From the NCBI RefSeq assembly GCF_900103285.1, contig NZ_FNGS01000007.1:62001-126000 (forward strand): a stretch of 64,000 nt of DNA, written 5' to 3'. Below the pieces are notes generated by a model. The model worked only from the letters and a program-made list of their open reading frames with translations, did no database searches and had not been told where the DNA came from. The stretch's first letter is position 1. Every line of letters starts with the position of its first letter. Shown here piece after piece: positions 46,593 through 56,659 of this stretch. The stretch comes from Siphonobacter aquaeclarae. GTDB lineage: Bacteria > Bacteroidota > Bacteroidia > Cytophagales > Spirosomataceae. A program made the translations under genes and the position numbers.

Positions 46593-47201
46593 TTGAATTA
46601 TCCTTCCAAGCTTATCGAAGACGCCGTTGAGGAGATCAGCAAGCTGCCGGGAATCGGGAAGAAAACGGCGCTTCGTCTGGCACTTCATTTACTCAAACGG
46701 GAGGAGCAACAGACGACTCAGCTGGCGGAAGCCCTGGTCAGTCTGCGGCAGAAGACCCGCTATTGCCGGCAATGCCATACCATTTCGGACGAAGAGCTGT
46801 GCCATATCTGTGCCAGTCCCCGTCGCGACAGCAGCCTGATCTGCGTCGTCGAAGATACCCGCGACGTCCTCGCGATTGAAAATACCGGGCAGTACCGGGG
46901 CCTGTACCATGTACTGGGCGGCCTCATCAACCCGCTCGAAGGCATCGGCCCCGCGGAGTTGCAGGTAGAATCCCTGATCGAACGCGTTGCCCAATCCGGA
47001 GAAGAAATCCGCGAAGTGGTACTCGCACTCAGTCCGACCATGCAGGGCGATACCACGTCGTTTTACCTGACCAAGCGCCTGCGTTCTTTCCCCCTCAAAA
47101 TCACTACTATCGCCCGGGGTATCCCCATTGGCGGCGACCTCGAATATGCCGACGAGATTACCCTCGGCCGGAGTATTGTGGGGCGGATATCGTATGAGTA
47201 G
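46593..47201 (+). CDS. recR: Recombination mediator protein RecR
   Basis: A 202-residue protein with the helix-hairpin-helix [17 protein letters not shown], the four-cysteine zinc motif ([16 protein letters not shown]), and the TOPRIM domain ([19 protein letters not shown]). RecR works with RecF/RecO in loading RecA at gaps. TTG 46593 is used as start because family members begin MN[FY]PSKL and no ATG is nearby. The stop codon TAG lies at the edge of the tandem duplication, which copies its last codon. Confidence 0.93.
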
Positions 47202-47268
47202 CTGTAGGCTTTAAGCTATAGGCAATAAGCAGGTCCCTGCCTATAGCTTAAAGCCTACAGCTTATTGC
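47201..47268. repeat. Palindromic intergenic repeat (member 2)
   Basis: The 23-bp perfect arms at 47201-47223 and 47239-47261 (GCTGTAGGCTTTAAGC core) are separated by 15 bases. The loop word GCAATAAGC can instead pair with GCTTATTGC at 47260-47268, so two mutually exclusive hairpins exist. Confidence 0.85.
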
Positions 47269-47279
47269 TTAAATCTCCG

Positions 47280-47479
47280 CTACTCCGGAAAAGCCGACTT
47301 ATCCAGTCCCGGTATCAGCCGGAGCGCATTTTTGTAGTATACCTTTTTGAGAATGGCATCCGGAAGACCCATCCCGTACATGCGCCGGAAGGCGTGGTAC
47401 TTCTTGTGGTAGGGGAAGTACTCGTCCTCCGTTTCGAGTACCCGGAAGTACGTCGCATATTCGGAGGGTACCCAGCTGT
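47280..47479 (-). pseudogene. Orphan 3' fragment of the amidohydrolase gene
   Basis: This is the unit-1 copy of the last 66 codons and stop of the gene at 47565. It has no start or promoter of its own. It keeps an open frame, and most differences from the intact copy are silent; one is Trp to Arg in the HAFWRMYG segment and one Val to Ile. Confidence 0.85.
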
Positions 47480-47485
47480 TGAGTA

Positions 47486-47553
47486 GCTGTAGGCTTTAAG
47501 CTGTAGGCAATAAGCAGGTCCCTGCCTATAGCTTAAAGCCTACAGCTTATTGC
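47486..47553. repeat. Palindromic intergenic repeat (member 3)
   Basis: The copy inside duplication unit 2; its arms (47486-47508 and 47524-47546) are complementary except for one base, where member 2 is perfect. It sits directly downstream of the intact amidohydrolase stop. Confidence 0.85.
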
Positions 47554-47564
47554 TTAAATCTCCG

Positions 47565-48680
47565 CTACTCCGGAAAAGCCGACTTATCCAGTCCCGGTAT
47601 CAGCCGGAGCGCATTTTTGTAGTATACCTTTTTGAGAACGGCGTCCGGAAGACCCATCCCGTACATGCGCCAGAACGCGTGGTACTTCTTGTGGTAGGGG
47701 AAGTACTCGTCCTCCGTTTCGAGTACCCGGAAGTACGTTGCATACTCGGAGGGTACCCAGCTGTCTTTCCCGAAGAGAATACGGTTCTGGTATTTCTCGA
47801 AAAACTTACGGGCCGTGCGCGGCTGCCGCCCCAGTTCGGCAATGACGGCGCCGATTTCCACATTTACATTCGGCAATACCGTCAGGATACTGTCCAATTT
47901 GCGGAGATCGTTCGGGTACCAGCCCATGTGCGCAGCAATGAACTGGGTTTTCGGATGCTTGCGGAAAACCTTGTGCTGCTGGTCGATCAGCTGCTCCCAG
48001 GTATAACCGCCTTTGCCGCCCTGCCGGCGACCGGGATTGAGCTTGAGTTCCAGCCAGCGTTCGTTGTAGCGGTCCAGCGGGTCCCAGAAGGGGCGCGGAT
48101 CGGCGGTATGGATCAGAACCGGTACGCCGAGCTCGCCGCATTTGGCCCAGATCGGGTCCAGGCGCGGATCATCCACCGGAATAATCTTACCGGTATTGTC
48201 CTTGATGTTGAAGCCGAGGTTCTTATAAATTTTCAGACCGCGCGCTCCTTTTTTCACGTCTTCTTCCAGCACTTTTACCGCCTCTTCCGTCCATCCCGGC
48301 TTTCCGAGACCGTCAAAGACGATATTGGTGAATAACGCGATGCGTTTCGGGGCCGACTGGCCAATGTTTGCCAGTGCCTGGTCGAAAAACTGCGTACTCT
48401 CAGGGAGGTTGTTGGTCCAGCCCCGCCCGCTCAGGTTGACCATGATCCGCATATTCAGCGCGTCCATTTGTGCCAGCAGTTCCTTCAGGTTTTGCGTGGG
48501 CATCTGAAACTGGTGGTTGTGGACGTCGATAAACGGAAATTTCGCCCGGGTCAACTTATGCTCTTCGACCCGTAACGTCGAAACGGGATCATACTCTTCG
48601 AAACCCAGAGGCTGGTCTGTCGTCTGCGCGCTGAGAAACCCCGGCAGCAGAAGGGCAAGAAGTGTAGCAGTTTTTCGCAT
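47565..48680 (-). CDS. Exported amidohydrolase (amidohydrolase_2 type)
   Basis: A 371-residue protein with a signal peptide (MRKTATLLALLLPGFLSAQ). The TIM-barrel metal-binding motif is FIDVHNHQFQMP near residue 50. Further candidate ligands are in VPVLIHTADPRPFWD and FIAAHMGWYPNDLRK, and the late conserved Asp is in FGKDSW. This is the decarboxylase/lactonase-like branch of the superfamily; the substrate is unknown. Its 3' end is duplicated just downstream. ispF lies 17 bases upstream on the same strand, so they may be cotranscribed. Confidence 0.87.
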   Translation of the reverse strand: MRKTATLLALLLPGFLSAQTTDQPLGFEEYDPVSTLRVEEHKLTRAKFPFIDVHNHQFQMPTQNLKELLAQMDALNMRIMVNLSGRGWTNNLPESTQFFDQALANIGQSAPKRIALFTNIVFDGLGKPGWTEEAVKVLEEDVKKGARGLKIYKNLGFNIKDNTGKIIPVDDPRLDPIWAKCGELGVPVLIHTADPRPFWDPLDRYNERWLELKLNPGRRQGGKGGYTWEQLIDQQHKVFRKHPKTQFIAAHMGWYPNDLRKLDSILTVLPNVNVEIGAVIAELGRQPRTARKFFEKYQNRILFGKDSWVPSEYATYFRVLETEDEYFPYHKKYHAFWRMYGMGLPDAVLKKVYYKNALRLIPGLDKSAFPE

Positions 48681-54134: not shown

Positions 54135-54165
54135 AAAAAGAGCGGGATGATCTCCCGCTCTTTTT
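54135..54165. terminator. Bidirectional terminator between convergent genes
   Basis: AAAAAGAGCGGGA pairs with TCCCGCTCTTTTT around a 5-base loop, with A and T tracts on either side. Confidence 0.92.
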
Positions 54166-54631
54166 ATTTCGAGGCTAGTGGAATGGCTCCATTGTGCGTC
54201 AGGATACGCCGGTGATAGTCGATCTGACCGAGGTGGTAATTGAGGTGCCCGTTGAGGTGGATGAGAAAATACCCGACAGACATTTCATACCCGAGCGGAT
54301 TATCCGGATAGGGTTTCTTCAGGTCTTCTTCCGATAGCTTCCCGACGGAATCGGTGATAATGGGCAGCAGTTCGTCCAGCGCCGCCAATAGCTCGGCTTT
54401 CGGAATATTCCGGCTGGCAAATTCAGCGGCGCGGTCCCGGACGTAGGGATATCCGCCCAATCCGAGGCCGATAAACGTCCGGAGATTGCCAATCAGATGC
54501 AGACATAGGTTGCCTGCGGGGTTGCTGATGCCTTCGGTGGTAAGCCAAAGCGCATCTTCGGTAGCATAGGCGTCGATTTCCTGCCGGAGGCGGGTAATGT
54601 CGCGGTGGTAGAGGGCGGCAAAGTCATTCAT
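54164..54631 (-). CDS. DinB/DUF1572-like metal-binding protein
   Basis: A 155-residue four-helix protein. The three candidate metal-binding histidines of the DinB superfamily are in NLCLHLIGN near residue 46 and in LIHLNGHLNYHLGQIDYH near residue 127. Members include metal-dependent thiol transferases and hydrolases; activity here is unknown. Its ATG overlaps the YCII stop (ATGA), so translation is coupled. It ends an operon that began with the SDR gene at 58376. Confidence 0.88.
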   Translation of the reverse strand: MNDFAALYHRDITRLRQEIDAYATEDALWLTTEGISNPAGNLCLHLIGNLRTFIGLGLGGYPYVRDRAAEFASRNIPKAELLAALDELLPIITDSVGKLSEEDLKKPYPDNPLGYEMSVGYFLIHLNGHLNYHLGQIDYHRRILTHNGAIPLASK

Positions 54632-54969
54632 GAGTATTGGAGTTCACGGATTTCAGCCCATCCGTCGGATTCAAAGATGGGACAGGACCGGAGAAGGGCA
54701 GTCGCCGTTTCCAGGTTTTCTTCACGGATCAGTAAAAATCCTCCGACAAATTCAAGTCCATGAAAAAGGGGCCCGTCTTCGGCAGGCAGCGAAGGATCTT
54801 TGATGACCTTGCCGTCCATCGTAAGCGACCCTCCGTGAACTAGCTTCTCACTTGCGCGGAGGGCTTGCAGCCAGGTTTGCCAGTGCTGCTGGTGTGTTTG
54901 GGTGAACGCTTCGGAATGTTCGTCGGTCCGCCCGTCGGGTTCCCGAAACAAAATCAGAAAGGTTTTCAT
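54628..54969 (-). CDS. YCII/DGPF-type small protein
   Basis: A 113-residue protein of the YCII-related (DGPFAET) fold: LILFREPDG at the start, HGGSLTMDGKVI, DGPLFHGLEFVGGFLLI and a terminal SCPIFESDGWAEIREL. The family is linked to ECF sigma factors elsewhere and has ferredoxin-like folds; function unknown. The ATG lies within the 61-bp repeat copy, directly beside the AT-rich insert. Before the insertion it overlapped the SIS gene stop as ATGA. Confidence 0.87.
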   Translation of the reverse strand: MKTFLILFREPDGRTDEHSEAFTQTHQQHWQTWLQALRASEKLVHGGSLTMDGKVIKDPSLPAEDGPLFHGLEFVGGFLLIREENLETATALLRSCPIFESDGWAEIRELQYS

Positions 54970-55017
54970 GGTCGTCCGGTATTGGCATAAAGGCCCGACA
55001 ATCGGCGGGCATGCTCG
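54957..55017. repeat. 61-bp direct repeat, left copy
   Basis: Identical at all 61 positions to 55868-55928. It carries the first codons of the YCII gene and a remnant of the last 16 codons of the SIS gene. Confidence 0.97.
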
Positions 55018-55867
55018 ATTTTTGGGAATTCATATGCTTCCTACAAATAATTTGCTCTGTTTTTAATTGCTGTGTTGTATGTCTGAACGAAATTGCCTGT
55101 TCCTAGTACTAATACAATATTTTATTAATGTCTAAGAAACTATATATTAATATCATCTAATAATAAATAACTCAATCAGGATTTGTTACCTGTATTAAAA
55201 TATAGTCCGTAAAAAAATCAATTTCCTTTATGTTATCGACACTTTGCCATCGAATTACAATGCCAGGATTCTTAAAAGATGGTTCACCACCTGTTAAACC
55301 CAAAGTTGTTATTGCGTTATCGTCATTAGTTAGATTAGGGGTTTTGTTGATAATAACACGGTCTACTTTATTGAGTTTAAAAAATATTTCATAGACTCCG
55401 TTCTTAAAAAATACTTTTTGGCATCCTGTGTTTTTGCAAGGATAGCCCTTCACTTTTACTATATTTTCAGCCTTACCTAGGACTTTTTCCACTTCTGTTA
55501 ATGTTTTTCCTTTAATTGTGTTAAAATCTAAGATAAGATTTTTCTCTTTCGTACTAGCTTTTTGAACTGCTTCAGAATTTGTTTCAGTTTCTGTATTTGG
55601 ACCGCTGCAGCCTATCATTACTATAGCTGCAGAAAAAAATAAAGCAAAGATTGAATTTTGGGTTGTCATGTATTTAGAAGTTATATTTAAAGTACTTACA
55701 AAAGATAATACTTAAGAAAGTCTTTTTGTAGAAAGCTCTTTCAAATGGTAACTATCGTAATAGATTGATAAAGGTAGGCGTTTTGAAGATACCTCAATAT
55801 CATTTGAAAACTATTGGAGTATCTCTGCCTGATGATTTTGTACTTCATCGCAGAAAAAAACATATTC
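55018..55867. mobile_element. 850-bp AT-rich insert between 61-bp direct repeats
   Basis: Base composition drops sharply from the GC-rich surroundings. It holds one lipoprotein gene (55172-55669) and about 200 bases of AT-rich DNA on either side. No transposase, integrase or clear terminal inverted repeat is visible, so the mechanism is unknown. A plus-strand frame at about 55765-55880 encodes KIPQYHLKTIGVSLPDDF, possibly a gene fragment. Confidence 0.75.
55172..55669 (-). CDS. Lipoprotein of unknown function on the AT-rich insert
   Basis: A 165-residue lipoprotein (MTTQNSIFALFFSAAIVMIG then Cys21). The mature part has a polar linker and one compact domain: GKTLTEVEKVLGKAENIV resembles the helix of SmpA/OmlA-like or BLIP-like folds, and YPCKNTGC has two cysteines that could form a disulfide. 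It is AT-rich in codon use, unlike every other gene here, suggesting recent acquisition. I do not recognise a named family. Confidence 0.75.
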   Translation of the reverse strand: MTTQNSIFALFFSAAIVMIGCSGPNTETETNSEAVQKASTKEKNLILDFNTIKGKTLTEVEKVLGKAENIVKVKGYPCKNTGCQKVFFKNGVYEIFFKLNKVDRVIINKTPNLTNDDNAITTLGLTGGEPSFKNPGIVIRWQSVDNIKEIDFFTDYILIQVTNPD

Positions 55868-55928
55868 GAAAGGTTTTCATGGTCGTCCGGTATTGGCATA
55901 AAGGCCCGACAATCGGCGGGCATGCTCG
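55868..55928. repeat. 61-bp direct repeat, right copy
   Basis: The identical partner of 54957-55017. It contains the true 3' end and TGA stop of the SIS gene (55877) and a 4-codon remnant of the YCII start. Confidence 0.97.
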
Positions 55929-56659
55929 TCATATGCCGACTCAAACAGGGAGACAGCGCGCTCGGTTCCGACAATCGCTCCGGCAGTCAGTACTTTCGGA
56001 GGCTGGCCGGCTTCGGTGAGTAAACGGGCGGTTTCGGCTTTGATGCAGTTGATCAGCAGCGCACCGCCGACAGTACTTCCCGGCGATACAGGTGTATCCA
56101 GTCCCGGAATCAGGACCATGGCGTCGCCGACGGGCGCGCCGGTATCCAGCACGAGGTCGGAAAAATCGGTCAGTTTCTTACCATCAGCCCGCTTCGAGGT
56201 ACTGGCGTCCGAATGTTCCTGCGTAACAACGGCTACCACCCGGATACCCCGCTGCTGAAACAACTCTGCCATTTCAATCGGAACGACATTACATCCGCTG
56301 GAGGAAATCACCAGCGCTGTATCGGCAGGTTGCAGGTCAAAATTCCGGAGAATACGCTCGGCGAGTCCCGGGACATTTTCCAGAAACATCGCCTGCCGCT
56401 GGCCGTTGGCGCCTACGACGAGGTTGTGGAACGTCAGCGATAATTCCACAATCGGGTTGAAACCCGGAAACGAACCGTATCTCGGCCACATTTCTTCGAC
56501 CATAATGCGGCTGTGTCCGCTGCCGAATACATGCACCATACGGCCGGCGAGAATGGTTTCTGAAAACCATTGGGCGGCCTGGGCAATGGCGGATTCCTGC
56601 GCCGATACGACATCAAGAATGTGCTGACTACGACGAAGGTAGTCCTGAATGACACTCAT
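55877..56659 (-). CDS. SIS domain sugar isomerase-like protein (UPF0309 type)
   Basis: A 260-residue protein with one SIS domain. Visible segments are VHVFGSGHSRIMVEEMW near residue 41, the phosphosugar-binding ALVISSSGCNVVPIEMA, and VVAVVTQEHS. It has the UPF0309/sugar-isomerase-domain architecture rather than GlmS or GmhA. It would bind a phosphorylated (amino) sugar; activity unknown. It starts 11 bases after the ROK kinase gene, and the pairing of ROK kinase with SIS protein fits amino-sugar use. Confidence 0.87.
   Translation of the reverse strand: MSVIQDYLRRSQHILDVVSAQESAIAQAAQWFSETILAGRMVHVFGSGHSRIMVEEMWPRYGSFPGFNPIVELSLTFHNLVVGANGQRQAMFLENVPGLAERILRNFDLQPADTALVISSSGCNVVPIEMAELFQQRGIRVVAVVTQEHSDASTSKRADGKKLTDFSDLVLDTGAPVGDAMVLIPGLDTPVSPGSTVGGALLINCIKAETARLLTEAGQPPKVLTAGAIVGTERAVSLFESAYDEHARRLSGLYANTGRP

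What the first reader, a model, noticed from the sequence alone, without database searches (positions are those of the whole stretch)
54957..55928. AT-rich 850-bp insert flanked by 61-bp perfect repeats that rebuild both interrupted genes
The right repeat holds the SIS gene end (CCATGA) and the left repeat the YCII start (ATGAAAACCTTTC). Before insertion the two genes evidently overlapped by ATGA. The event duplicated 61 bp so that neither gene was lost. No transposase or integrase is present. A 61-bp target duplication is far larger than that of ordinary IS elements (2-14 bp), which points to a site-specific element remnant, a repair-based capture of foreign DNA, or an unknown element type.
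Basis: partly seen in the sequence, partly recalled or inferred. Interest (0 to 1): 0.75.

Follow-up and report, generated by a model that had tools for sequence, protein, structure and literature searches.

The report
Foreign gene inserted with 61-bp duplication
A small AT-rich foreign gene seems to have been inserted between two overlapping bacterial genes, and the 61 bases at the insertion point were copied so that both genes kept their full length; it looks like one capture event of a rare, already described kind rather than a new mobile element.

Summary
Joining the flanks through one copy gives SIS (260 aa) and YCII (113 aa) overlapping by ATGA, as YCII and DinB do.

No transposase, integrase, terminal inverted repeat or second copy was found.

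The empty site was not found: none of 80 named SIS loci examined has YCII nearby, and the five other same-genus genomes gave no SIS match. In 1.50 Mb (24%) of the host genome, 1 of 15 AT-rich patches, this one, has an exact repeat of 14 bp or more at its edges. Another patch holds a diverged 179-bp repeat pair, undecided.

The anatomy matches "insertion with long target duplication", described for restriction-modification genes of Helicobacter pylori. My preferred mechanism is a staggered break, fill-in and end-joining of a foreign fragment; the host has Ku and a LigD polymerase domain. This is inferred, not shown. New member of a known kind; moderate interest.

The parts
54957..55017 (-). left 61-bp copy; holds the start of YCII (ATGAAAACCTTTC on the minus strand) preceded by a duplicated SIS tail that is no longer joined to the SIS gene
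55018..55867 (.). 850-bp AT-rich insert (GC 0.302)
55172..55669 (-). 165-aa lipoprotein-like frame (N-terminus judged by eye, Cys21 shared by the three closest sequences; no signal-peptide program was run); no Pfam family at 0.001; homologues 50% and 48% identical in two genomes of the same family; model has two helix-plus-strands units
55868..55928 (-). right 61-bp copy; holds the native SIS end (stop TGA) followed by a duplicated YCII start that reads on into the insert and soon meets a stop codon
55877..56659 (-). SIS-domain protein, intact (260 aa); 75-82% identical to the 80 named loci kept by the search
54628..54969 (-). YCII-domain protein, intact (113 aa)
54164..54631 (-). DinB-like protein, overlaps YCII by ATGA; next gene of the same operon-like row
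55030..55037 (+). 8-bp TCATATGC inside the insert, 12 bp from the left copy; the same 8 bp lie directly next to the right copy at 55929-55936; possible microhomology, weak

Best explanation
One event of insertion with long target duplication. A foreign AT-rich fragment carrying a lipoprotein-like gene was captured at the SIS-YCII junction. I think most likely two nicks about 61 nt apart on opposite strands opened a staggered break, the overhangs were filled in so that each side kept the 61 bp, and the fragment was joined between the two ends by Ku/LigD end-joining. Shown: perfect 61-bp duplication, foreign composition, one gene and no recognisable mobility gene, both host genes whole, Ku and a LigD polymerase domain in the genome. 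Inferred: that it was an insertion into an empty site, the staggered break, the fill-in and the end-joining.
For: 61/61 identity with abrupt loss of similarity beyond. Insert GC 0.302 against 0.539. One copy restores an ATGA overlap identical to that of YCII/DinB. SIS and YCII look native at these ends: the close SIS homologues (69-80% identical) align to residue 258-260, and the ten YCII matches, own included, start at residue 1 or 3. Ku at G000:C14:133242 and a LigD polymerase domain at C14:137631, both over the curated cut-off. An exact edge repeat of 14 bp or more at 1 of 15 AT-rich patches suggests a rare event rather than a resident element. In none of 6 homologue loci is the gene bracketed by an exact repeat of 16 bp or more within 6 kb (gene positions; repeats), so the gene is not known to travel as such a unit. 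In print: tandem duplications at staggered breaks depend strongly on Ku in mammalian cells (passages of PMC8355091).
Against: No empty site was seen. A 61-nt stagger is long. At the SIS side an 8-bp shared sequence followed by 12 extra bases is not explained by simple blunt joining (fraction of shuffles 0.009-0.0105, 0.001-0.012). No test here separates end-joining from template switching or a circle crossover. The LigD ligase domain was not tested. The passages read on long target duplication name no enzyme. A second AT-rich patch in the genome (C14:325656-327124) lies between diverged copies of a 179-bp block; if that is an older case of the same kind, such events are less rare here than I assume.
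Confidence: 0.5

Rival explanations
1. Single crossover of a small circular DNA that carried the lipoprotein-like gene together with a 61-bp piece of the SIS-YCII junction. This is the circle model proposed for genes with long flanking repeats in Arabidopsis.
For: Produces exactly this anatomy; passages of PMC2869330 argue for it over target duplication in plants.
Against: It does not explain how foreign 30% GC DNA first came to be joined to 61 bp of this host. No other copy of the insert or full repeat found in the genome.
Confidence: 0.17
2. Replication template switching: the polymerase left the junction, copied a foreign fragment, and returned 61 bp upstream of where it left.
For: Gives a long duplication with no enzyme of its own; an 8-bp shared sequence near one junction is the kind of microhomology expected.
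Against: The 8 bp do not sit at the joint: 12 unexplained bases lie between; the other junction shows no similarity above shuffles.
Confidence: 0.15
3. Remnant of an element integrated by a site-specific recombinase, the 61 bp being its att identity block at the 3' end of SIS (a cis-mobilizable remnant).
For: Gene 3' ends are common attB sites and identity blocks of this size occur (recalled, not tested).
Against: No integrase-like frame in the insert; full 61-mer at no third place in the genome; no SIS-end repeat longer than 12 bp downstream of SIS in 20 of 22 SIS loci of relatives, about 1.5 kb held each; no hit to the protein in phages, viral contigs or plasmids (the viral scan only reaches close relatives).
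Confidence: 0.08
4. Assembly artefact joining an unrelated fragment at the repeats.
For: 61 bp is short enough to be an assembler word; N runs exist elsewhere in the fetched stretches, as gaps or withheld bases.
Against: To be joined, the fragment must itself carry the exact 61 bp at both ends, which chance cannot give; no N on this contig; the gene has homologues in the same bacterial family.
Confidence: 0.05

Closest known systems
Insertion with long target duplication, restriction-modification genes of Helicobacter pylori (Nobusato et al. 2000; Furuta et al. 2010; neither read, seen as citations in PMC1643837, PMC3154945, PMC3031569, PMC4978471, PMC3874152)
   Different: Cargo here is a lone lipoprotein-like gene, not a restriction-modification system; host is a Bacteroidota bacterium; no strain pair showing the empty site
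Single transposed genes with flanking direct repeats in Arabidopsis (passages of PMC2869330)
   Same: Non-transposon genes flanked by repeats over 30 bp that match the target site
   Different: Plant genomes; authors prefer circle insertion at pre-existing homology
Tandem duplications from staggered breaks repaired by end-joining (passages of PMC8355091)
   Same: Fill-in of overhangs followed by Ku-dependent joining
   Different: Mouse and human cells, duplications without a foreign insert; the bacterial case is inferred

Membership tests
Insertion with long target duplication | foreign unit flanked by direct repeats much longer than IS duplications | tested here: met
   61/61 bp; insert GC 0.302
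Insertion with long target duplication | repeat present once in the empty site of a relative | tested here: inconclusive
   no relative with SIS next to YCII: 0 of 80 named loci, up to 3 kb flank each, and none among the loci except the own genome
Insertion with long target duplication | no transposase or integrase in the unit | tested here: met
   the only listed frame over 60 aa lying wholly inside the insert is the lipoprotein-like one; no Pfam family
Insertion with long target duplication | cargo is a restriction-modification system (as in the published cases) | tested here: not met
   no significant Pfam, NCBIfam or PADLOC family; I treat this cargo as typical, not defining
Site-specific integrative element or its remnant | recombinase gene or a further att copy | tested here: not met
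Insertion sequence or MITE | terminal inverted repeats and 2-14 bp target duplication | tested here: not met
no inverted repeats of 20 bp or more; end-to-end inverted similarity of the last 40 bp no better than shuffles, 0.47 and 0.83 by two scorings; duplication is 61 bp.
Integron gene cassette | attC site with conserved fold at the cassette end | tested here: inconclusive
   the repeat folds no better than shuffles, z -1.04, and is host coding sequence; no attC model was run
End-joining capture | host has Ku and LigD | tested here: met
   Ku; LigD polymerase domain in an 829-aa open frame; the ligase domain itself was not tested
End-joining capture | event lost in ku or ligD mutants | not testable with these tools
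   needs a bench assay

The most novel reading that the evidence does not exclude
Insertion with long target duplication is not a property of restriction-modification genes but a general way in which end-joining bacteria pick up single foreign genes between tightly packed genes: because the duplicated stretch spans the stop of one gene and the start of the next, capture inside an operon costs neither gene.
Probability: 0.3. Interest if true: 0.55.

Novelty: new member of a known kind. Interest (0 to 1): 0.38.

Why it matters
How single foreign genes without mobility genes enter bacterial operons is seldom seen at base resolution. Here the duplication is unmarred, the insert is strongly AT-rich, and the duplication explains how an insertion into overlapping coding sequence left both genes whole. 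It would widen a pattern known from H. pylori restriction-modification genes to other cargo and another phylum, and gives a signature (long perfect repeat spanning a stop/start overlap around a composition shift) that can be counted across genomes and correlated with Ku/LigD. One search of the held library for 'long target duplication' together with 'bacteroidetes' gave 0 papers; that is not proof of absence.

Tried and rejected
No SIS-YCII neighbourhood found outside the own genome, so the site cannot be compared. Donor: the lipoprotein-like protein matched 7 of 59 genomes at E 0.001, 6 of 222 family genomes and 2 of 395 of a class sample at E 1e-8, own genome included each time; none in named genomes and viral contigs (which reach close relatives only), phages or plasmids; no DNA match in plasmids. 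DNA similarity to the two nearest homologues is 65-67% and lies inside the coding region.

A second candidate in the same genome is left undecided. One search showed exact 41-bp repeats 1290 bp apart around AT-rich DNA at C14:325773 and 327063. I first put it aside as a dispersed palindromic motif. On rechecking, the palindromic part is indeed dispersed (13 places with up to 4 mismatches in the sampled 1.50 Mb), but the first 28 bases of the repeat occur only at these two places, and the pair belongs to a block of about 179 bp, 138 of 167 aligned bases identical. In a control of 298 random places with the same spacing the best score was higher (87 against 72; I did not look at what gave it). 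It may be an older long duplication or a repetitive intergenic unit on both sides.

Patch test: one search listed 17 AT-rich patches; two with long N runs were dropped before the count of 15. The test looks for exact repeats of 10 bp or more within 400 bp outside and 250 bp inside the estimated patch edges, so it misses diverged repeats and does not see the C14 block pair. Results: 61 bp here, 13 bp and 11 bp in two others, none in twelve.

Extended homology beyond the 61 bp: I tested whether the insert ends are degenerate SIS and YCII sequence. SIS side 0.016 by protein shuffle, 0.001-0.012 by nucleotide shuffle depending on length; YCII side 0.36-0.68 by nucleotide and 0.58 by protein. Shuffles kept base composition only. 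I treat the SIS-side 8 bp as possible microhomology, not as homology.

Function of the cargo: no significant family in Pfam, NCBIfam or PADLOC (weak hits only). Structure model mean pLDDT 80.6; no PDB match at E 0.001 or better; best 0.0034 to one chain of an integrative model (TM 0.40), then a cysteine-rich secretory protein at 0.012. Left as unknown. Rfam: two hits far below the gathering scores. Insert fold no better than shuffles.

Full report
What is there. The two 61-bp copies are identical and lie at 54957-55017 and 55868-55928. Between them are 850 bp at GC 0.302; the window has 0.539. The genes all read on the minus strand: a dehydrogenase-like gene, a sugar-kinase-like gene (names of these two by resemblance, not tested), SIS, the insert, YCII, DinB. 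Joining the flanks through a single copy gives SIS of 260 aa whose TGA stop lies in the ATGA that starts YCII of 113 aa; YCII and DinB overlap by the same four bases.

The insert holds a 165-aa frame on the same strand as its neighbours (55172-55669) with a lipoprotein-like N-terminus, judged by eye; Cys21 is shared by the three closest sequences but not by all seven aligned. The gene looks real by conservation: homologues of 50% and 48% identity in two genomes of the same family and weaker ones elsewhere, with 48 invariant columns in the three-way alignment (counted from the list) and 9 in the seven-way one. The fold prediction shows two units of a helix followed by strands; the PDB comparison gave nothing at E 0.001 or better.

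Where it comes from. The host probably belongs to the Spirosoma group: four contigs of its family relatives have the same lengths as contigs of named Fibrella, Larkinella, Rudanella and Telluribacter records (the link is my inference). The insert has no DNA relative in plasmids and, outside itself, only a 30-base chance-level hit in the sampled own genome. The homologue in G215 also sits in an AT-rich stretch, with an IS110-like transposase frame (name recalled) about 1.2 kb further on. The gene therefore seems to be a sporadic accessory gene of this family, but in none of 6 homologue loci is it bracketed by an exact repeat of 16 bp or more (gene positions; repeats).

Is it a resident element? 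I scanned 1,496,560 called bases of a genome of 6,189,941. Of 15 AT-rich patches of at least 500 bp, one, this one, has an exact direct repeat of 14 bp or more at its edges; one has 13, one 11, and twelve have none of 10 or more. Two further patches with long N runs were dropped. The full 61-mer occurs only at its two places; the next hit is 18 bases. The insert occurs once. One patch, C14:325676-327625, contains two copies of a block of about 179 bp, 83% identical over aligned bases, that bracket its AT-rich middle and contain a dispersed palindromic motif. The edge test does not see them. I cannot say whether this is an older duplication of the same kind.

How it probably arose. The target stretch was present once and became two with no loss. 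Staggered nicks with fill-in give that directly, the duplicated length being the stagger. Bacterial end-joining needs Ku and LigD (recalled; also stated in abstracts listed). A Ku match in a 271-aa open frame and a LigD polymerase domain in an 829-aa open frame lie about 4 kb apart on contig C14. According to the passages read of PMC7719229, end-joining is sporadic in bacteria and all Bacteroidetes of that study that have it have the conventional kind. Passages of PMC8355091 show Ku-dependent tandem duplications at staggered breaks in mammalian cells. The step from those facts to this locus is inference. Template switching and a circle crossover give similar products and cannot be excluded.

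A detail that does not fit neatly. Directly beside the right copy the chromosome reads TCATATGC; the same 8 bases lie in the insert 12 bp from the left copy. Shuffled sequences reach such a match in 0.001-0.012 of trials depending on the length tested, at one of two junctions. It may be microhomology that helped hold the ends, with 12 bases of filler, or chance.

Consequence for the operon. The coding sequences survive, but in the left copy the SIS tail is no longer part of SIS, so YCII has lost its overlap with a translated SIS frame; in the right copy the duplicated YCII start reads into the insert and soon meets a stop. This is the reading of sequence only; expression is untested.

What is known. 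'Insertion with long target duplication' was named for H. pylori by Nobusato et al. 2000. I could not read that paper or Furuta et al. 2010 (the second is not held; the first I did not ask for by id); I read passages of papers citing them: PMC1643837, PMC3154945, PMC3031569, PMC4978471 and PMC3874152, which gives the length as in the order of 100 bp. PMC2869330 (passages) reports genes with long flanking repeats in Arabidopsis and prefers a circle model. The present case fits the H. pylori pattern in anatomy, with different cargo and host.

Limits. No empty site, no reads, no strain pair. Of 59 genomes searched, own included, the five others of the same genus had no SIS match. None of the 80 named loci had a YCII match within the flank held, although 71 had the kinase, 59 the dehydrogenase and 1 a DinB-like match (only 80 of at least 564 relatives were kept). 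The SIS-YCII junction is thus private to this lineage in what I could search, and insertion into an empty site rests on the collapse of the repeats.

Noticed in passing
window 47195-47764: A 285-bp tandem duplication (98%) whose second copy takes in the last 200 bp of an amidohydrolase-like frame (name recalled) at 47565-48680, minus strand; another recent duplication at a gene end in the same window.
   Followed up: partly
G000:C14:325656-327124 (L119): AT-rich DNA (GC 0.34) between two copies of a 179-bp block, 138 of 167 aligned bases identical, with a dispersed palindromic motif inside; possibly an older long duplication around foreign DNA, possibly a repetitive intergenic unit.
   Followed up: partly
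G000:C14:64201-66000 and 290926-292950: AT-rich one- or two-gene patches without edge repeats of 10 bp or more, so other foreign-looking genes in this genome entered without long duplications or have lost them.
   Followed up: partly
L072 1060-1485 and L074 1865-2371 (genomes G137, G232): Distant homologues of the lipoprotein-like gene sit next to a helix-turn-helix-regulator-like frame (by eye), which may hint at a recurring accessory pair.
   Followed up: no
window 54628-54969: YCII no longer overlaps a translated SIS frame, so expression of YCII and DinB may have changed.
   Followed up: no
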